The translations under genes were made by a program, and so were the position numbers. 35,568 nucleotides of DNA, from positions 1 to 35,568 of IMG/VR virus record IMGVR_UViG_3300027733_000123; one strand, 5' to 3'. The stretch is from a virus. The notes beneath the pieces are model-generated. The model worked only from the letters and a program-made list of their open reading frames with translations. It was not told the DNA's origin and searched no databases. Positions within the stretch are counted from its first letter, which is position 1. Every line of letters starts with the position of its first letter. Positions 16,676-24,713 of the stretch are shown piece by piece.

Positions 16676-17836
16676 TTATGCTAGGCTGTATCTGCCTGTT
16701 CCTCTCCTTGTATTGTAACTTGACCACGCTAATGCTAATGCCATTACACAATCATCGTGGAATCCGCTAGGTGCTGAATATCTAACTCCTGTACTTGTAA
16801 AGATATATTCAAAGATGTTTAATTCATCTACGATTACTCCATCAGGATACTTAATTTGTTTTTGTTGTATTGCAGCAGATAGCCCTTCCATTAATTGCTG
16901 CTTACTTGAACTCGTAAACCTTAACCCTTCTATTTGCATACCACTGCGTTGTAAATCCTCTAGTACAGGGTCTCCTACTCCTGTGCTATCTATTAAAGTA
17001 TGAGCCTTTGGTAATCGTTTAATGTTCTCTTTTGTATTATGCCAATCCATTTGGAATCTATCAAAGTAGCATACTTGCCCTAAATCATCCAACCCAACTA
17101 TAACTGTCCAATCCACAGACTTGGCAATATCTATACCAAATGATACAGGTATGCGACCACTCATAGGAGATATACATTTTCTAATGAACTCACTACCAAA
17201 AGGATTTGCACTATTCTCGGCAGGGTTTGCCATATATTCTTGCTCAAATACTGCGTGTGGTAATTGGAATTTAGCTGAATCTATTTCACTTGCAGGTATA
17301 GTTGGATTGTCATAAGTGCTAAATTTAAAACTCTCCCAATCAGTCTCACCGCCTTTCATAAATAAGCTATAAAAGTAGTTAGTGCCTTTAGGTGTAGATA
17401 AGAAGATAGCACCACCCTGATAATCAGTTAATGTAGGTCGTATTGAATTAAGCCAACCTTTCTCAAGGTCAGGTATAAAAGAAGCCTCATCCATAATTAC
17501 TTTATGAAACTTCAATCCTCTAAATGAATCAAGCCTTGTACCTGTAAAGAATCTAATCTTTCCCCCTGTTCTAAACTCAATGATTAAATCTGACCTATTA
17601 GTTTTGTATGCTCCATCAGGTAAGTGAGTACATAACTCATCAAAGAATACTTTGGATAGTAAAAATGTAGGAGTAACATAAGCAACTGACTTCCCCTCTA
17701 ATGCTTCTTTAATAGCAATAATTTGTGAAACTAAAGACTTCCCCCATCTTCTGCCACACATTAAAACAATAAACCTGCTATTTGATTCTAATACAGGTAA
17801 TTGAGTGCTATGGGGTTGTGGTAATATTATTTCCAT
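16676..17836 (-). CDS. terL: Terminase large subunit
   Basis: A 386-aa DNA-packaging motor. Walker A is GRRWGKS (residues 28-34), Walker B VIMDEA (113-118), and a SxTPKG coupling motif is present as LSTPKGTNYF. The C-terminal RNase H-like nuclease shows its acidic residues in GIDIAKSVDW, in LIDSTGVGDP and in the final DDCVMALALA. The length is typical of the short TerL forms seen in phages with HK97-like heads. It overlaps the small subunit gene by 29 bases. It cuts concatemers and pumps DNA through the portal. Confidence 0.95.
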   Translation of the reverse strand: MEIILPQPHSTQLPVLESNSRFIVLMCGRRWGKSLVSQIIAIKEALEGKSVAYVTPTFLLSKVFFDELCTHLPDGAYKTNRSDLIIEFRTGGKIRFFTGTRLDSFRGLKFHKVIMDEASFIPDLEKGWLNSIRPTLTDYQGGAIFLSTPKGTNYFYSLFMKGGETDWESFKFSTYDNPTIPASEIDSAKFQLPHAVFEQEYMANPAENSANPFGSEFIRKCISPMSGRIPVSFGIDIAKSVDWTVIVGLDDLGQVCYFDRFQMDWHNTKENIKRLPKAHTLIDSTGVGDPVLEDLQRSGMQIEGLRFTSSSKQQLMEGLSAAIQQKQIKYPDGVIVDELNIFEYIFTSTGVRYSAPSGFHDDCVMALALAWSSYNTRRGTGRYSLA

Positions 17837-18185
17837 AAGGCATAAACTTAACTGTTATTGTATTATCAGTTGTAATATCAATTTCAGCCTGTTCTTTAGG
17901 TCTACCATATACCCTTGTTAATAATGTCTCAAGTGAGTAAAGGCTTCCTTTAGCTAGGCTTTTATTCATAGCGTGTGCTATTGTCTTTTCTAATATTGTG
18001 GCATCAGGATTGTCATACACTGATTTAAGTTCATCACTATTCATTGACATCATTGCTTGAATGGTATCATTAATCTCACTTAACTTATATCCTTGTGCTT
18101 TTAGTAATGTAACATACTTTCTTGGTCTCCCATTAGGATTGCCTGATTGACCTTTGACAAATGGTATTAAATGTTCCTTGCTCAT
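17808..18185 (-). CDS. terS: Terminase small subunit-like protein
   Basis: A 125-aa protein beginning MSKEHLIPFVKGQSGNPNGR, with the KGQSGNPNGRP motif typical of DUF5681-type proteins found before TerL. A helical centre (KLSEINDTIQAMMSMNSDEL, ILEKTIAHAMNKSLAKGS) and VYGRPKEQAE follow, a pattern seen in small terminase subunits. It is directly upstream of, and overlapping, the large subunit, so DNA recognition for packaging is the natural role. The start is four bases past the ParB-like stop. Confidence 0.8.
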   Translation of the reverse strand: MSKEHLIPFVKGQSGNPNGRPRKYVTLLKAQGYKLSEINDTIQAMMSMNSDELKSVYDNPDATILEKTIAHAMNKSLAKGSLYSLETLLTRVYGRPKEQAEIDITTDNTITVKFMPYGNNITTTP

Positions 18186-18189
18186 TCTG

Positions 18190-18852
18190 TTATTGTTCTG
18201 TTTTATCTTTATTATAGTCTAACCTGATTTTAATTTGGCTCTTACTTTCCCACGCTTTTTTGTATTCAGCATCTGCAAACAATTTGCTAAATCCTGTTAT
18301 ATGTTTTAGTTTAAGCAACTCTTCAACTTCCATACCTAACTCGTTACATATTTCTTCATCTGCCCATCCGTTCTCTAACATCTTGAATACCATACTTGAC
18401 ATTCCTGTTATAGAGTGTTTTCCCCTTGCTCGGTTATGTCTAACTGTACTTGCCATTCTGTCGTTAATATCTTTCTTTATTACTACAATTGGCAACATAC
18501 CTAGATTTCTTTCATATATGTCTCTATTGTTTTTGCAGGTAAAGTATCTGTGGAATCCGTCTACTATTACATATTTCTTTATTGATTCATCATATATGGT
18601 TACAATAGGTTGGGTATAGCCATCGTGTTGGATTGAGTGATAAAGTAATTGCATCTCTGTCTTTGCTACGCTATTTGGGTTATAGTCATTAGGTTGTACC
18701 TCATCTATGCTAACCCATCTTATATAGTCAATCGGTTGTGAATTAACAGGGCTTAACTCCTCGTGAATCCATTTCCTTAACTCGGCTATAAAATCTAGTT
18801 TATTGTTTGCTTTCTCAAAATGCTCTAGTATTGTATCTTTAATCTGCTTCAT
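18190..18852 (-). CDS. ParB-fold protein, IbrB-like
   Basis: A 220-aa protein with a ParB/Srx-type N-domain at about residues 45-135: EVQPNDYNPNSVAKTEMQLL, SIQHDGYTQPIVTI, VDGFHRYFT in place of the GERR box, then STVRHNRARGKHS. A HTH-like segment (WADEEICNELGMEVEELLKL) follows. This composition matches IbrB-type proteins, which occur next to an IbrA PAPS-reductase-like partner, exactly as here (genes overlap by 14 bases). ParB-fold domains bind DNA and many bind or hydrolyse nucleotides. IbrA/IbrB were first linked to gene regulation in E. coli; their biochemical activity is not known to me. It lies directly upstream of terminase. Confidence 0.8.
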   Translation of the reverse strand: MKQIKDTILEHFEKANNKLDFIAELRKWIHEELSPVNSQPIDYIRWVSIDEVQPNDYNPNSVAKTEMQLLYHSIQHDGYTQPIVTIYDESIKKYVIVDGFHRYFTCKNNRDIYERNLGMLPIVVIKKDINDRMASTVRHNRARGKHSITGMSSMVFKMLENGWADEEICNELGMEVEELLKLKHITGFSKLFADAEYKKAWESKSQIKIRLDYNKDKTEQ

Positions 18853-19990
18853 TCTTTGCTTTATAATAATTGTAATATAATGGGTTTACTGTACCTTTTA
18901 GGAATCTTCTATAACCTTGTGCCTCTCCATTTCTTTCAAAGTTATCTATTGTAGTGCTATGATAATCATTAGATAAGATAGCGTTAACACATACTTTGTT
19001 TGCTCTATCCATTATCCATTTATGCTTATAAGTTGCATCTATCTTTTTAAAATACTTATAAAACTTCTCTTTGATTGTCTCATCACTTATTAGATTATCA
19101 CATAAATAGTTTCTATATTCAACCCAACTACTAAACATATATGGTATTTCCTTAATCCTAAATGCCTCACCTTTCATTTGTCCTGCCGTATTTATTCCTT
19201 TTATTCTATCAGTTAATTTAACCCAAGTATCAGCCTCAATTTCTTGTAAGAAAAACAACTGCTTAAATGCGGTTTCGTGATGTAAGTTACTTACTCTCAT
19301 ATCTAAAATAGAATAACCATACTGATACATATAGTCGTAAATCTTACAATACTTCCAATTGTTATCGTGTATGGCTTTCCATATATCTGTGTAACTCCAA
19401 TCATATAATGGATAAAATACATAATGCTCTAACTTTTTATTGAACACTTTGCCATAAGTAATGTCTTGATAAGTAGCTTGTTGTGTCATAGCCAATGCCC
19501 TTCTTGGACTCTCCTCTGCTCTTACTCCACCTAGTAATGCAGTCTTTTTATCATTGAACTCAACTTCAATTACTTTATCAAATAGTTTTGAGAATCTATC
19601 TGTGCCATATTTGTTTTCCTTTATAGATATGGGGTTTTGCTCTCTCATCCACTTCTTACCTTGCTCCCAAGTTATAAGCCATTCTTCTGTAGTGCTCGTG
19701 CTATTAAATAACTTTATGGGTATTTGTAACCAATATGGTATAACTTTTTTGTCATACATTATATTCTCAACATAGTTAATTACATTTTGCCATTCCGCTT
19801 CTTGGTCAATAAATACTACTGAAATTGGCAACCGATTCTTTTCTTCAGCAACCTTTAAAGCCATATTTAAAATAACTGTGCTATCCTTTCCACCTGAAAA
19901 AGCTACTACTACATTAGGGAACTCATCAAATAAATAACGGATTCTATCTAAAGCAGCTTCGTAAACATTTTGGTTTTTAAATACTTTCAT
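18839..19990 (-). CDS. PAPS reductase-family protein, IbrA/DUF3440-like
   Basis: A 383-aa member of the adenine-nucleotide alpha-hydrolase/PAPS reductase superfamily. The ATP-pyrophosphatase loop SGGKDS is at residues 32-37, and GGVRAEESPRRALAM is the second conserved block. The C-terminal half with YPLYDWSYTDIWKAIHDNNW is diagnostic of the DUF3440/IbrA group. The catalytic Cys motif of true PAPS reductases (ECGLH) is absent and scattered Cys residues do not form an obvious iron-sulphur site. It overlaps genes on both sides: DNA methyltransferase upstream and IbrB-like ParB downstream. Activity on DNA or nucleotides (adenylation, sulphur transfer) is inference by analogy with DndC-like relatives. 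Confidence 0.85.
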   Translation of the reverse strand: MKVFKNQNVYEAALDRIRYLFDEFPNVVVAFSGGKDSTVILNMALKVAEEKNRLPISVVFIDQEAEWQNVINYVENIMYDKKVIPYWLQIPIKLFNSTSTTEEWLITWEQGKKWMREQNPISIKENKYGTDRFSKLFDKVIEVEFNDKKTALLGGVRAEESPRRALAMTQQATYQDITYGKVFNKKLEHYVFYPLYDWSYTDIWKAIHDNNWKYCKIYDYMYQYGYSILDMRVSNLHHETAFKQLFFLQEIEADTWVKLTDRIKGINTAGQMKGEAFRIKEIPYMFSSWVEYRNYLCDNLISDETIKEKFYKYFKKIDATYKHKWIMDRANKVCVNAILSNDYHSTTIDNFERNGEAQGYRRFLKGTVNPLYYNYYKAKNEAD

Positions 19991-20519
19991 ACTTTGATAT
20001 TACTTTCATTAACTTTTCATACCTCTTTGGATTTAATTCATAACCTATATATTTAGCACCGCTTTTATAAACTGCTTCAGCTGTTTTGCCTATACCTGCA
20101 AAAGGGTCAAATACTATATTTGGTTTTAGGCTTCTTACTACATAATTAACAATATTAAATCCTTTGGGATTATCAGGCAATTTAAGCGAAGTATTAAATG
20201 AAATGATATTGTATGGCAATCCATTTTTTTGATGTCCTAAAATTGTTTCTATATGTTTATGACCACTATTCTCAAAATGACTTATAACTCTTTCTGTTCC
20301 TAAAATAGAATACTCAACAAATGCAGGTTTATTACAATTACTTAAAGATGCTAATTTATTTAGTATTAAATCTATATCATTTTCAACTATTAATCCTGTA
20401 TCTTTTTTTAATTGTGTTTGAAAAAACTTAACCATTCTGTCTTCCCATGGTGGGTCGCAATAAAGTATATCATATTCAGGAAAAAAATCAACTTTTATTA
20501 TATCAATGTTTTTATGCAT
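19977..20519 (-). CDS. Small DNA methyltransferase, DPPW type
   Basis: A 180-aa amino-methyltransferase. The catalytic motif DPPW is at residues 22-25 and the SAM-binding motif DPFAGIG at 138-144, so the motif order is IV before I, as in beta-class DNA N6-adenine or N4-cytosine methylases. The small size leaves only a short target-recognition region between them (residues 40-125). DPPW favours adenine as target. The gene overlaps both neighbours by a few bases and is directly upstream of the IbrA-like gene. A role in protecting phage DNA from restriction, or as part of a larger modification pathway, is inferred. Confidence 0.85.
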   Translation of the reverse strand: MHKNIDIIKVDFFPEYDILYCDPPWEDRMVKFFQTQLKKDTGLIVENDIDLILNKLASLSNCNKPAFVEYSILGTERVISHFENSGHKHIETILGHQKNGLPYNIISFNTSLKLPDNPKGFNIVNYVVRSLKPNIVFDPFAGIGKTAEAVYKSGAKYIGYELNPKRYEKLMKVISKYESI

Positions 20520-21096
20520 AATAGTTTTTTATGTAATTTTTATCATAAATGTCAGAAGTTCTTTTAATGCTATTAGCGTTTCCCATTGATGAATTTATAT
20601 TTATATTGTGTTGTATAATACTAGGCAAATGTACATACGCTTTCCTTTTGTAGTGTTTTAAATAAGCTGCGACAAATACATCATCCCATTTTATTTGAGT
20701 ATTAATTTTTAAATATTCTTTCATTTCATCTACTGCTCTCCGACTAAACACAGTACCTTGTAACCATAAAAAATTTGGGAACTCACTATATTTGATTCCT
20801 TTTTCATATTGGCTTTTAAGAAATGCCCTTCTTGGTGCAAATAAAGATAATACATCTATGTCCTTTTCTTTCATATCATTTTTAATTACTTCAAGATATT
20901 TCTCAAATTGTTCAGGAATTATTATATCATCTTGTAAATGTAATTTATAATCATCAAATGGAATATTTAGCATTTGAACAAAAGAATTAAAACAACCATT
21001 CATTCCATAATCATAATATACTTCTGCTTTGATTTGGTTAATAATTTTTACTACATTACTTTCTCTATCCTTAATAGCTTGTATCGTTATTTTCAT
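20512..21096 (-). CDS. Glycosyltransferase-like protein (GT-A type)
   Basis: A 194-aa protein resembling short GT-A glycosyltransferases: an N-terminal MKITIQAIKDRESNVVKIIN region, a DxD-like LQDDI at residues 54-58, and WDDVFVAAYLKHYKRKAYVH near the end, similar to acceptor-proximal segments in such enzymes. It is short for a full glycosyltransferase and has no membrane segment. It sits between two methyltransferases in an overlapping operon. Possible acceptors are virion protein, host glycan or modified DNA bases; the sequence does not decide. Confidence 0.65.
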   Translation of the reverse strand: MKITIQAIKDRESNVVKIINQIKAEVYYDYGMNGCFNSFVQMLNIPFDDYKLHLQDDIIIPEQFEKYLEVIKNDMKEKDIDVLSLFAPRRAFLKSQYEKGIKYSEFPNFLWLQGTVFSRRAVDEMKEYLKINTQIKWDDVFVAAYLKHYKRKAYVHLPSIIQHNININSSMGNANSIKRTSDIYDKNYIKNYYA

Positions 21097-21880
21097 AAGT
21101 AACTATTTTATAATTATTAAAAATAAAGCCATCTTGATTTGATGTATAGTAATTAGTATTTATATTTAAATTTTCGTGAGTAATTGGGAAATACCCATCT
21201 TTAAAATACATTAAATATGCCTTACCTCCTACACTTAACATTGACTTAACTCTATGTAAAGATGTTGGATTTATATATGAAGGACTTCCAAATAATGAAA
21301 TAATTGTGTCAAACTTTAAAGGAGTATAAAAATCTTCAAATGCACAATTTAATACATCTTTGTTTGTAAAGTTTTGCTTTAATGTTTTTAATTGATTTAT
21401 AGAAATATCAATGCCTAGATATTTTTCCGAATTAATATAATTTAATGCCATACCATAACCGCAGCCAATGTCTAATACACTTCCTTTTATATCTAACTTT
21501 TTAAATAATTCTAACTCCTCTAAATGACTTTCTTCATTATTAAACATTTCAAAATACTTGTCAGCTATTGTATCATATTCTGTTTTATATTCTACTACTG
21601 CTCTATTAATTAAAATAGTTTCATTAATTGGAGCTCCCATAGTCCAATATTTATAGCCATTTAATTTAAAAATTTGGTATGGCTTTTTCCAAAACCATTC
21701 TATTTCGCTATGCTCTCTTATATATTTTACTACATTATTAAACAATATATCATTTTTCCAATTTTCTCTCAATGTATATGCGTGTGGATTTCTTATTGCA
21801 GTTTTAGCGTTCTTAAAATATTGACCTAATAATGTTTCAGCTACTTGTTCAAATATCATATTGTAATTATTTTCTAACAT
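21071..21880 (-). CDS. SAM-dependent methyltransferase, class I
   Basis: A 269-aa protein with a clear Rossmann methyltransferase core from about residue 130: VLDIGCGYG (135-143) is motif I, LGIDIS is the acidic post-I strand, and FDTIISLFGSPSYI is motif IV. The order resembles small-molecule or protein methylases rather than DNA methylases (no NPPY/DPPW). The N-terminal 100 residues (RNPHAYTLRENWKN, YQIFKLNGYKYWTMGAPINE) are unusual and might bind substrate. Overlaps of 14 bases with the ParB-like gene and 26 with the glycosyltransferase-like gene suggest a shared pathway. Confidence 0.8.
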   Translation of the reverse strand: MLENNYNMIFEQVAETLLGQYFKNAKTAIRNPHAYTLRENWKNDILFNNVVKYIREHSEIEWFWKKPYQIFKLNGYKYWTMGAPINETILINRAVVEYKTEYDTIADKYFEMFNNEESHLEELELFKKLDIKGSVLDIGCGYGMALNYINSEKYLGIDISINQLKTLKQNFTNKDVLNCAFEDFYTPLKFDTIISLFGSPSYINPTSLHRVKSMLSVGGKAYLMYFKDGYFPITHENLNINTNYYTSNQDGFIFNNYKIVTYENNDTSY

Positions 21881-22415
21881 AAAATGTGCTTCCGCAATCA
21901 GGGCAACATACTTCCATCTCCTCTACTTTAGATATGTCACTCATTCTATCACTCATTTTACCCTCTACTTGTTTTACCTCATTAGCAGTTACTACCTTGT
22001 GATTCGTTTCAGGTATAAGGTTTGGATTAAAATCAGGTACATCCCATTGAATTACATCCCACTCTTTTAGTGTTGCATTATCCCAAGTGTTAGCTAACTC
22101 ATCCCAATCAAATTGACCTGCGTTAGTATTATCTTTAATCATAAACTCATCTTGTTGTTCTTGACTCCAACCTAAAATATATATAACAGGTACTTCTTTA
22201 TATCCTAAATGAATTGCAGCTTTATATCTCATATTGCCACCAAGAATAACTCCATCTTCATTAACAACAATAGGTCTTGCGTGTAACATTTCAGGAAAAT
22301 CTGTCAAACTTTGTATGAGTTTTTTAAATTTAGAATCCTTAATCAATCTAGGATTTTTTGGATGTGGTTTAATTTCATTAATACTAACTACTTTAACCTC
22401 TGTAATTTGTTGCAT
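21867..22415 (-). CDS. ParB-like protein with C-terminal Cys motif
   Basis: A 182-aa protein. Residues 5-90 are a ParB N-terminal-type domain (EIKPHPKNPRLIKDSKFKKL, then HARPIVVNEDGVILGGNMRY and AAIHLGYKEVPV). Residues 95-140 (DNTNAGQFDWDELANTWDNA) match the linker that follows ParB domains in ParB-DNA methylase fusions of phages and plasmids. The C-terminus ends CCPDCGSTFYVRK, a single zinc-knuckle-like motif. Here it looks like the ParB half of such a fusion, encoded apart from the methylase at 19977-20519. It overlaps the HNH gene by 23 bases. DNA binding is likely; catalysis is uncertain. Confidence 0.8.
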   Translation of the reverse strand: MQQITEVKVVSINEIKPHPKNPRLIKDSKFKKLIQSLTDFPEMLHARPIVVNEDGVILGGNMRYKAAIHLGYKEVPVIYILGWSQEQQDEFMIKDNTNAGQFDWDELANTWDNATLKEWDVIQWDVPDFNPNLIPETNHKVVTANEVKQVEGKMSDRMSDISKVEEMEVCCPDCGSTFYVRK

Positions 22416-22659
22416 TTAATTTGTCTTTATGTTTAGTTTTTAAAAAATCCATATATTGTTTTTTGTCTCCGTATTCTAAATGATGCTCTCTACACAATGC
22501 CATAAGATTATCTATTGTATCTCCTTTTTTTGTTCCCCCCATTCCCCTTGCTTCAATATGATGAATATCTACTGCCCTTGCTCCACAAGTTTCACAAGGT
22601 ATAAAATCCTCACCTGTGTAACCAAAATGGTTCAAATAGACTTTAGTATGATTTTTCAT
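22393..22659 (-). CDS. HNH endonuclease
   Basis: An 88-aa protein with a compact HNH fold: zinc-binding Cys22, Cys25, Cys56 and His59, the HH pair at 33-34 in DIHHIEARGM, and Asn51 in the IDNLMALC segment. The length is typical of stand-alone phage HNH enzymes. In many phages an HNH enzyme near terminase helps packaging, but here it is about 4 kb upstream of terS, inside the accessory cassette. It could instead act as a homing-type or host-DNA-degrading nuclease. It overlaps its neighbours by 17 and 23 bases. Confidence 0.85.
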   Translation of the reverse strand: MKNHTKVYLNHFGYTGEDFIPCETCGARAVDIHHIEARGMGGTKKGDTIDNLMALCREHHLEYGDKKQYMDFLKTKHKDKLNATNYRG

Positions 22660-23650
22660 TTCCTATTAGTTTATTAAAAATATTATACCTTTTTTTATTT
22701 ATCTCATCAAAGTTAAACTCTTTATTGCAAAACTCAAATAGTTTTTGTCCGTATTCTATCCTAGCTGCTTCATCAAATGTCAATAGCTTAATCCATTTGT
22801 ACCAATCAGTTTGTTTATTTACATAGCATACAGGCATATTTTTATATGGATGCACATTACTAACTATGGCAGGGTTTTTCTTTGCTGCAGTTTCTAATAC
22901 CTTTAAATTAGATTTCATTGAACCAAACTTGTTTTCTACTAAAGGAATTATGCTTATATCAGAATCAGCATAAGCACCCATATACTTTGTAATTTCTGCA
23001 TAATCATATATGGTAGGGTTTAACTTTAATCCGTTTGTAAATACTCCTATCATTCTATCCCAAAGATGTTTCTCACCTAGATTATATCCTGCAATAACTG
23101 TCCTAACAGGAAAGTTTATCTTCTTCATTGGTTGTCGTAATATATCTAAATCAGGTGTATGTGTTCCTGAACCTGACCAAAACAACCTAACCATATCTGA
23201 TTCAATCTTATTATCTTGAAACTGCTCTTTACCATAAGGTAAAGCATTAGGAAGTATCTCTACATTAGGATTGTAGATGGCTATTTCTTCTGCTAATCTT
23301 TCGTGTGTGCAAGTGCAAAGGTCTGCTATTCTAATAAAGTCAGTTATCCTTTTAGTTACATCACTATCCCTGTATCTTTCATATAAAATATGTGAAGGTG
23401 GTAAAATCCAATAGTCATCATTATCAACCACTAACTTAAACTTGTATCTCTTTCGCATAGCCTCTAGCATAATTATTTCAGTATGTGCTAGGAATCTATT
23501 GAATATTACTATGTCATAATTATTATCAAATACTGCTTCATTGATTGTATCTGTAATCATACAATAATCCTTACGCATATTAACTAATGGCATCATTATT
23601 CTATGATAGCCAACCCCACTAAATTTACTTGTTATTGCTAGGATTCTCAT
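22643..23650 (-). CDS. Glycosyltransferase, GT-B (family 4-like)
   Basis: A 335-aa protein with GT-B features: N-terminal MRILAITSKFSGVGYHRIMM (Rossmann start), IVIFNRFLAHTEII, a NDDYW segment, and a C-terminal Rossmann half containing LFWSGSGTHTPDLDILRQPM and the donor-site region SDISIIPLVENKFGSMKSNL followed by KVLETAAKKNP, typical of family 4. No membrane segment is present. The neighbouring GT-A enzyme starts four bases before its start codon ends. The donor and acceptor are unknown. Surface-glycan alteration (superinfection exclusion) or virion glycosylation are both plausible. Confidence 0.8.
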   Translation of the reverse strand: MRILAITSKFSGVGYHRIMMPLVNMRKDYCMITDTINEAVFDNNYDIVIFNRFLAHTEIIMLEAMRKRYKFKLVVDNDDYWILPPSHILYERYRDSDVTKRITDFIRIADLCTCTHERLAEEIAIYNPNVEILPNALPYGKEQFQDNKIESDMVRLFWSGSGTHTPDLDILRQPMKKINFPVRTVIAGYNLGEKHLWDRMIGVFTNGLKLNPTIYDYAEITKYMGAYADSDISIIPLVENKFGSMKSNLKVLETAAKKNPAIVSNVHPYKNMPVCYVNKQTDWYKWIKLLTFDEAARIEYGQKLFEFCNKEFNFDEINKKRYNIFNKLIGNEKSY

Positions 23651-24234
23651 AAAGGAAGGTAATATGTTTTGCTGCCATTTGAATAGTTTGCAACATTGCT
23701 AGTATGTAATTCCCAAGTACTTTTGACTAATTCATTCTTGTTATAACCATAAGCATCTATTCCATTCTGTTCTATATGAGTTGCCCAACCTAAATGAATA
23801 TATTTAGTATATAATCCTGCTGCTCTTACTCGTGTGCAATAGTCAAGGTCAATAGCACCATAAGGGTCAAGTGCAGTATTAAACGCACCTACATTTTTTA
23901 TAACTTCTTTGCTTATTGTAAAGTTTCCTATTATATCTGTTGTGTCATCAAAGCCACCGACTAATGGTATTGCACATATACCTACGCTTTTGTCTTGCAT
24001 AAATATATTTCTTACCTTTAACCAATTATCAGGCTCTAAAATATCATTAGATAACAAAGTAACATATTGAATGTTGCTAAAGTCTATTTTATTTAGACCA
24101 ACATTAATAGCATTAGCTATTCCTTTTTCTTTTACTATTACAACTTGCTCAACATCTAAACCTGCATTAGATAAGTTGATGCCTAATGTTTTAACACTAT
24201 AATTTTTGTAGTTTAAAAATATTACTGCGTTCAT
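23647..24234 (-). CDS. Glycosyltransferase, GT-A (family 2-like)
   Basis: A 195-aa truncated GT2-like enzyme. MNAVIFLNYKNYSVKTLGIN opens a Rossmann-like domain, ANAINVGLNKIDFSNIQYVT and LLSNDILEP carry the nucleotide-sugar binding region (SND in place of DxD), and the C-terminal ALDPYGAIDLDYCTRVRAAG has the acceptor-side ED-like position as LD. It is shorter than most GT2 enzymes (about 230-300 aa). ATGA-type overlaps link it with the genes on both sides. Confidence 0.8.
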   Translation of the reverse strand: MNAVIFLNYKNYSVKTLGINLSNAGLDVEQVVIVKEKGIANAINVGLNKIDFSNIQYVTLLSNDILEPDNWLKVRNIFMQDKSVGICAIPLVGGFDDTTDIIGNFTISKEVIKNVGAFNTALDPYGAIDLDYCTRVRAAGLYTKYIHLGWATHIEQNGIDAYGYNKNELVKSTWELHTSNVANYSNGSKTYYLPL

Positions 24235-24713
24235 TTGATTATATTTTGTCCTAAAGATTTAGCAGGTACACCTGCATATTTTGTATATGGTTCTGATTCA
24301 CCTTTAAAAAATGCACTTGCTCCAATCATACAACCTTCTTCTATTTCACTAAATTGATGCAATACTGCATTTAATCCTATGTTTGAATTAGGTTTTATAG
24401 TAGAATGACCACCTATTTTTGCTCCACAACTAATTGTTACATTACTTCCAATCCAACAATCGTGTCCAATATGTGCGTGTTTCATTATAAAACAATTACT
24501 TTGAATAATTGTTTCGTATTCTGTACCTGCATCAATCGTAACCAAGCCTGTAATAATATTATTATCTCCAATAATTACTTTGCCTTTTGACTTATCCCAA
24601 TACTTCTTATGTTCGGCAGGGTCGCCTATAATACAATAAGCACCTATGTAATTGTTATCACCTAGTATAACATTATTACCTATGATTGCAGTTGGATGTA
24701 TATTATTTGCCAT
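24231..24713 (-). CDS. Left-handed beta-helix acyltransferase
   Basis: A 160-aa protein made of hexapeptide repeats ([LIV]-G-x4): HPTAIIGNNVILGDNNYIGA, then KVIIGDNNIITGLVTIDAG, SNCFIMKHAHIGHDCWIGSN and GGHSTIKPNSNIGLNAVLHQ. It resembles LpxA and sugar O-/N-acyltransferases. The conserved HAHIGHD segment fits the catalytic His of LpxA-like enzymes. The C-terminal helical extension of LpxA is missing, so a sugar acetyltransferase is more likely than lipid A synthesis. It begins the sugar-related part of the accessory cassette. Confidence 0.85.
   Translation of the reverse strand: MANNIHPTAIIGNNVILGDNNYIGAYCIIGDPAEHKKYWDKSKGKVIIGDNNIITGLVTIDAGTEYETIIQSNCFIMKHAHIGHDCWIGSNVTISCGAKIGGHSTIKPNSNIGLNAVLHQFSEIEEGCMIGASAFFKGESEPYTKYAGVPAKSLGQNIIK

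What the first reader, a model, noticed from the sequence alone, without database searches (positions are those of the whole stretch)
18190..24713. Accessory cassette: IbrA/IbrB-like pair, DNA methylase, second ParB and glycosyl/acyl transferases
Ten overlapping genes lie between the replication genes and terminase: hexapeptide acyltransferase, GT-A, GT-B, HNH, ParB with Cys motif, class I methyltransferase, short GT, DPPW DNA methylase, IbrA-like PAPS-reductase-family protein and IbrB-like ParB. Overlap of nearly every start and stop argues for a shared transcript and pathway. PAPS-reductase and ParB folds recur in DNA-modification systems (for example DndC in phosphorothioation), and glycosyl and methyl transferases could decorate a modified base. 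The complete set has no counterpart I know and is the best candidate for a new DNA or virion modification / anti-restriction system.
Basis: partly seen in the sequence, partly recalled or inferred. Interest (0 to 1): 0.85.

Follow-up and report, generated by a model that had tools for sequence, protein, structure and literature searches.

The report
Swappable phage DNA-modification gene set
A freshwater-type phage carries, next to its DNA-packaging genes, a six-gene set that recurs in dozens of other phages and most likely adds an unusual chemical group to the phage's own DNA; in sister phages the same spot holds other, known kinds of DNA-modifying enzymes.

Summary
The ten overlapping genes are real and the domain calls are right, but they are not one cassette. 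Hexapeptide acyltransferase, GT-A, GT-B and HNH are core genes of this phage clade and occur with or without the rest. The other six (18190-22415: ParB2, N100-methyltransferase, short GT, DPPW methylase, IbrA, IbrB) form a genuine ordered module. It recurs, with parts exchanged, upstream of terminase in many unrelated phages: of 27 nonredundant IbrA loci, 24 have ParB2, 23 IbrB, 22 the N100 domain. In sister phages the same HNH-terS slot holds ParB plus a known DNA-modifying enzyme (Mom, C5-methylase, N4/N6-methylase, TET-associated glycosyltransferase), or nothing. IbrA has an intact PP-loop but no conserved cysteine, so it is neither a PAPS reductase nor DndC. Some modules carry AdoMet or arginine decarboxylase beside it. 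I infer ATP-dependent attachment of an amine-type group to DNA, then tailoring; that chemistry is not shown. A caution: the window lacks eight tetranucleotide palindromes (GATC 0 of 83 expected), so the phage still evades restriction by losing sites, which argues against blanket protection. Verdict: probable DNA-modification module, new variant of a known kind; the ten-gene claim is rejected.

The parts
18190..18852 (-). IbrB-type ParB/Srx-superfamily protein (220 aa), partner of IbrA
   Evidence: ParB_N 1e-6, phrog_2159 1.5e-72; DGFHR and RHNRARGKH invariant in the alignment; co-inherited with IbrA, Mantel rho 0.61, 0/500 permutations
18839..19990 (-). IbrA: PP-loop ATP pyrophosphatase (383 aa); SGGKDS, DQEAEW, RAEESP, DWSYTDIW motifs; no conserved Cys
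   Evidence: nearest solved chains FAD synthase and CysD
19977..20519 (-). DPPW protein: small permuted (motif IV before motif I) N6/N4 DNA methylase-like enzyme (180 aa)
   Evidence: N6_N4_Mtase 8e-8; DPPW invariant in 21 homologues; profile matches DpnA, CcrM, MboIIA structures
20512..21096 (-). Short GT-A-fold glycosyltransferase (194 aa) with the DD motif (LQDDI)
   Evidence: AlphaFold pLDDT 94; Foldseek GT-A enzymes E 2e-6; phrog_854; homologue fused to the N100 domain in L165
21071..21880 (-). N100 domain (about residues 1-100, PH.Y...YWTMG...INR) fused to a class I SAM methyltransferase (269 aa)
   Evidence: model pLDDT 95; MTase part matches sugar/small-molecule N-methyltransferases; a 93-aa viral protein matches with TM 0.84, taken to be a stand-alone N100
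21867..22415 (-). ParB2: ParB-superfamily protein with C-terminal CxxC; a ParB2 homologue accompanies most modification enzymes in the slot
   Evidence: phrog_620/498; C-terminal CxxC in 69/69 IbrA-linked ParB2 against 1/23 ParB of sister phages with other partners
22393..22659 (-). HNH protein, clade core and one border of the swap slot; not part of the module
   Evidence: HNH 1.8e-5; found in 72 loci (window locus included)
22643..24713 (-). GT-B, GT-A and hexapeptide acyltransferase: clade-core genes, not part of the module
   Evidence: GT-B in 66, GT-A in 47, Hexa in 44 loci, many of them contig fragments; present when the slot is empty or holds other enzymes
17808..18185 (-). terS-like protein, other border of the swap slot
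   Evidence: conserved in 75 loci; directly upstream of terL 16676-17836; terS role inferred from position, no named family match

Best explanation
The six genes at 18190-22415 are a self-contained, horizontally exchanged phage DNA-modification module sitting in a swap slot between HNH and terminase. Shown: conserved gene content and order in many phages, intact catalytic motifs, and replacement of the module in sister phages by other ParB-linked DNA-modifying enzymes. Inferred: ParB2 and IbrB bring the enzymes to phage DNA. IbrA uses ATP to activate (adenylate) a group on a DNA base, either a ring carbonyl as TilS does in tRNA or a handle placed by the DPPW/class I methylase pair. A nucleophile, probably an amine, replaces the AMP. 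Methylase and glycosyltransferase then tailor the product, with N100 acting as their substrate-positioning domain. The modified DNA is packaged and hides some sites from host defences.
For: (1) Swap slot: in terL relatives the HNH-terS interval holds ParB+Mom (PF25680, 1.9e-51), ParB+C5 methylase (4.9e-45), ParB-N4/N6 methylase fusion, ParB+TAGT (3.4e-36), or nothing. (2) Recurrence: of 27 nonredundant IbrA loci with enough flank, 24 ParB2, 23 IbrB, 22 N100, 20 terL; IbrA-IbrB co-inherited (rho 0.61) more than IbrA-terL (0.24). (3) Tailoring enzymes: methylases, GTs, GNAT; near IbrA also AdoMet decarboxylase (1e-12 to 1e-22) and pyruvoyl arginine decarboxylase (1.4e-48), both amine-yielding. 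(4) Fusions N100-methylase, N100-GT (L165) and ParB-methylase. (5) IbrA PP-loop intact, no conserved Cys in 49 homologues. (6) Precedent: CmoA/CmoX plus the ATP-dependent ligase CmoY, often beside a ParB, make 5-glycylcarboxymethylcytosine in phage DNA, shown by LC-MS (PMC12783734).
Against: No chemistry is shown. The window avoids eight 4-bp palindromes almost completely, so the module does not spare the phage restriction-site avoidance; the IbrA-free sister L057 shows similar avoidance. The decarboxylases are in a minority of modules and not in this window. IbrA+IbrB also occur without the rest (Streptococcus, Flavobacterium phages), and DPPW+GT occur without IbrA (L164), so the parts need not act in one pathway. 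AdoMet decarboxylase could serve aminopropyl transfer unrelated to IbrA. N100 divergence does not track ParB2 (rho -0.02) or IbrB (0.11).
Confidence: 0.6

Rival explanations
1. Phosphorothioate or thio-base modification (Dnd-like): IbrA is a DndC-type sulfurtransferase, ParB2's CxxC relays sulfur and IbrB replaces DndB.
For: Weak DndC and BrxP profile matches; C-terminal CxxC in 69/69 IbrA-linked ParB2.
Against: IbrA scores 34.8 bits against the DndC cut-off of 290; no cysteine conserved across 49 IbrA, whereas DndC has cluster cysteines and a cysteine dyad (PMC10853773); no DndD or DndE match among the module genes.
Confidence: 0.12
2. Two independent sub-modules that sit together: DPPW+GT(+N100) make one modification, IbrA+IbrB(+ParB2) another.
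For: L164 has GT+DPPW without IbrA; most IbrA loci lack DPPW (6 of 27 have it); IbrA with ParB proteins and few or none of the other parts in Mycobacterium, Bacillus and Streptococcus phages.
Against: Largely constant order and position in many contigs; N100 is linked to IbrA in 22 of 27 loci and is fused to the methylase or the GT.
Confidence: 0.3
3. Auxiliary sulfur metabolism: IbrA is a viral cysH that helps host sulfate reduction, as PHROG annotation suggests.
For: PAPS_reduct Pfam hit 1.5e-18; phrog_2302 is named phosphoadenosine phosphosulfate reductase.
Against: Below the curated cysH cut-off (26.1 against 165); no conserved catalytic Cys; partners are ParB, methylase and GT, not sulfur genes.
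Confidence: 0.03
4. Transcription co-activators: IbrA/IbrB act as regulators, as the names (immunoglobulin-binding regulator) suggest.
For: Historical naming; records annotate them as co-activators of prophage gene expression.
Against: Enzyme motifs fully conserved; repeatedly linked to modification enzymes and terminase rather than to one regulated gene. A DNA modification could itself explain expression changes.
Confidence: 0.07
5. One ten-gene pathway, including the GT-A/GT-B/hexapeptide set.
For: Contiguity and overlap.
Against: Hexa, GT-A, GT-B and HNH are present in sister phages with an empty slot, Mom, or methylases; overlaps are common in the neighbouring region.
Confidence: 0.04

Closest known systems
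CmoA/CmoX/CmoY cytosine carboxymethyl-glycine system of Synechococcus phage S-B43 (PMC12783734)
   Same: SAM-type enzymes plus an ATP-dependent AMP-forming ligase, often next to a ParB-domain protein, in phages; working analogue
   Different: CmoY is asparagine-synthetase-like, not IbrA; the methylase is C5-type CmoX, not DPPW; N100 and IbrB were not found mentioned in the passages read
Lysidine synthase TilS (PP-loop, amine onto tRNA cytidine)
   Same: PP-loop ATP pyrophosphatase; chemistry proposed for IbrA
   Different: IbrA scores 24.3 bits against the TilS cut-off of 93.6; substrate unknown
Dnd/Ssp phosphorothioation (DndC, DndB)
   Same: PP-loop enzyme with a ParB-superfamily partner acting on DNA
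   Different: No conserved cysteines, no DndD or DndE match, below the DndC cut-off
Mom, TAGT and ParB-methylase DNA-modification genes in sister phages
   Same: Occupy the same slot with a ParB2 homologue; likely the same biological role
   Different: Different enzymes; their stand-alone ParB lacks the C-terminal CxxC (22 of 23)
Computational predictions of phage DNA hypermodification (Iyer et al. 2013, NAR; from memory, not held in the library)
   Same: I recall predicted 'pyrimidines comparable with lysidine' and modified-SAM systems in phages
   Different: Could not be read here; whether this exact module was listed is unverified

Membership tests
IbrA (DUF3440-type PP-loop family) | Full-length match and intact SGGKDS PP-loop | tested here: met
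   PF11922 30.9 bits against cut-off 25; phrog_2302 5.8e-87 over residues 2-348; SGGKDS invariant in 49
PAPS reductase (CysH) | Catalytic C-terminal Cys motif and curated score | tested here: not met
   26.1 bits against 165.1; no conserved Cys column
DndC | Cluster cysteines and cysteine dyad; curated score | tested here: not met
   34.8 against 290.4 bits; no conserved Cys; the feature as described in PMC10853773
TilS | Curated score of the TilS N domain | tested here: not met
   24.3 against 93.6 bits
N6/N4 DNA methylase (N6_N4_Mtase) | DPPW motif IV and FxGxG-type motif I, curated score | tested here: met
   32.9 bits against 26.7; motifs invariant or nearly so in 21 homologues
N6/N4 DNA methylase (N6_N4_Mtase) | Methyl transfer to DNA | not testable with these tools
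   needs biochemistry
ParB partition protein | Curated ParB family score | tested here: not met
   IbrB 24.9 and ParB2 17.8 against 58.45 bits (TIGR00180); ParB_N domain only
GT-A glycosyltransferase (short GT) | GT-A fold and acidic metal motif | tested here: met
   Foldseek hits are mostly GT-A enzymes; D57 of the DD motif invariant in 30 homologues
MADS defence (Mad2 methylase) | Specific match to Mad2 | tested here: not met
   PADLOC match 8.5e-11, but that profile also hits many generic methylases per genome and all 14 control genomes

The most novel reading that the evidence does not exclude
A widespread, combinatorial phage DNA-hypermodification system in which an IbrA PP-loop enzyme adenylates a DNA base and attaches an amine or polyamine (a lysidine/agmatidine-like reaction in DNA), varied by swapping decarboxylases, GNATs, glycosyltransferases and methylases, with N100 as a new tailoring-enzyme adaptor domain. 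Many viral 'cysH' metabolic genes would then be DNA-modifying enzymes.
Probability: 0.3. Interest if true: 0.85.

Novelty: new variant of a known kind. Interest (0 to 1): 0.62.

Why it matters
It would give a function to IbrA/IbrB, which are common in phages but named after a regulatory effect, and would reassign many viral 'PAPS reductase' genes from sulfur metabolism to DNA modification. The swap slot shows phages exchanging whole modification chemistries at one site beside terminase, and cultured Microbacterium phages make the prediction testable.

Tried and rejected
Single-sequence search with IbrA in viral contigs found nothing; an alignment query fixed that. The lead that MTc1 is Mad2 of the MADS system was dropped because the profile is a generic methylase. 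tblastn for relatives of the short GT and of MTc1 in isolate phages gave no match; an N100 query and profiles found the Microbacterium phages. The 'relatives' mode does not work for virus records. Literature on IbrA/IbrB in the held library is thin. The ten-gene unit, a sulfur-metabolism role and a close DndC relationship were considered and rejected as above. A palindrome test meant to look for relief from restriction came out against it.
Full report
Observation. The window is a 35,568-base virus record. All ten ORFs are present on the minus strand between 18190 and 24713, every neighbouring pair overlaps (9/9), and the domain assignments hold. Terminase lies on one side and replication genes (DnaD-like, Erf-like, polymerase exonuclease) on the other. 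Overlap says little here: 7 of 11 pairs immediately upstream also overlap.

The ten genes split in two. With the terminase as bait, 80 loci from related phages were fetched. Hexa, GT-A, GT-B and HNH recur throughout that set (44, 47, 66 and 72 loci, many of them fragments), whereas within that set IbrB occurs only in the closest relatives L004 and L005, IbrA only in L004 (L005 is cut off there), DPPW weakly in L004, and the short GT and MTc1 are matched only by the window itself. So Hexa-GT-A-GT-B-HNH are clade core, and 18190-22415 is an accessory island in the interval between HNH and terS.

The interval is a swap slot. In about 70 relatives where it is complete, it is empty, or holds a 117-aa ORF of unknown function (26 loci), a ParB-N4/N6 methylase fusion (12), ParB plus Mom (13 loci), ParB plus C5 methylase (4), ParB plus TET-associated glycosyltransferase (4), or ParB plus an ABC/GNAT protein (1), besides a few other fillings. 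The ParB-linked fillings are DNA-modification enzymes or plausible ones. This is guilt by position for the window's island.

The island is a real module. IbrA and DPPW alignments fetched about 100 viral loci, and a genome scan 36 more. The order ParB2 - N100(+methylase) - GT/DPPW - variable enzyme - IbrA - IbrB - (terS) - terL recurs, with variants that place ParB2 after IbrB. In 27 nonredundant IbrA loci with enough flank: ParB2 24, IbrB 23, N100 22, terL 20, class I methylase 12, short GT 11, DPPW 6. IbrA and IbrB distances correlate (rho 0.61), IbrA and terL less (0.24), consistent with transfer of the pair between phage lineages; N100 distances do not track the others significantly. The ParB2 of IbrA loci has a C-terminal CxxC in 69 of 69 cases (redundant set), against 1 of 23 stand-alone ParB proteins in sister phages with other partners.

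Parts. IbrA keeps SGGKDS, DQEAE, RAEES and DWSY.D.W but has no conserved cysteine in 49 homologues; its nearest solved chains are FAD synthase and CysD, and it misses the curated cut-offs for CysH, CysD, DndC and TilS. DPPW is a small permuted adenine/N4-type methylase relative. MTc1 has a confident model (pLDDT 95): a class I methylase resembling sugar and small-molecule N-methyltransferases behind a roughly 100-residue N100 domain. N100 has no clear Pfam match, occurs alone in many modules, is fused to the GT in L165, and a 93-aa viral protein matches over its length by fold. The short GT is GT-A fold.

Variable enzymes near IbrA include AdoMet decarboxylase, pyruvoyl arginine decarboxylase, GNAT, a second GT, an EPPF methylase-like protein and a possible Asp/Arg-hydroxylase-like dioxygenase (weak, E 0.03). 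Loci with the class I methylase domain tend to lack these small enzymes (4 with against 19 without, Fisher p 0.0014), as if they were alternative tailoring options. That test was chosen after seeing the data.

Mechanism. The best-supported reading is DNA modification. The specific chemistry, ATP activation by IbrA followed by attack of an amine, rests on the PP-loop fold, the absent cysteines, the decarboxylases and the CmoA/CmoX/CmoY precedent (PMC12783734). It is an inference; roughly one in three in my judgement.

A counter-signal. The entire window contains no ACGT, CCGG, CGCG, GATC, GCGC, GGCC or TCGA and one CATG, against expectations of 8 to 114 each. The island itself is purged too. 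Related phages avoid different subsets. The phage therefore seems to live under strong restriction pressure that it meets by site loss, and the module does not visibly relieve it. A sequence-specific or partial modification, or one aimed at other defences, remains compatible; blanket protection is less so.

Novelty. Phage DNA hypermodification is known, and ParB-linked enzymes are known; from memory, Iyer et al. (2013) predicted lysidine-like DNA bases, but that paper could not be read. I therefore rate this a new variant of a known kind, with the modular IbrA set, the swap slot and the N100 domain as the new elements.

Noticed in passing
window 1-35568: Near-total absence of eight 4-bp palindromes (GATC 0/83 expected, CATG 1/114, ACGT 0/32, TCGA 0/29, GCGC 0/26, GGCC 0/19, CCGG 0/13, CGCG 0/8), while AGCT, CTAG, GTAC and TGCA are much nearer expectation; sister phages avoid different subsets.
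   Followed up: partly
L013:9253-9606 and 25 similar loci: A conserved 117-aa ORF of unknown function fills the HNH-terS slot in 26 loci of the phage clade; no Pfam or PHROG match.
   Followed up: no
L177:5925-6458: Pyruvoyl-dependent arginine decarboxylase (Pfam 1.4e-48) between DPPW and IbrA in a viral contig.
   Followed up: partly
L182:5517-5894; L174:5671-6045; L165:6518-6886: AdoMet decarboxylase-like genes inside IbrA/DPPW modules; L182 keeps an ESH..IHT motif, L174 and L165 have TSH.
   Followed up: partly
L164:5344-6525: Short GT and DPPW sit directly upstream of likely terminase genes with no IbrA, IbrB or ParB2, so this pair can occur on its own.
   Followed up: no
L165:5099-5998: Fusion of the N100 domain with the short glycosyltransferase.
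   Followed up: yes
L066:2133-3212: ABC ATPase-GNAT fusion next to ParB in the same slot, matching phrog_11143 of unknown function at 2.2e-98.
   Followed up: no
window 22643-23650: The core GT-B has relatives (about 31% identity) in Phapecoctavirus-type Escherichia and Klebsiella phages, usually two places per record.
   Followed up: partly
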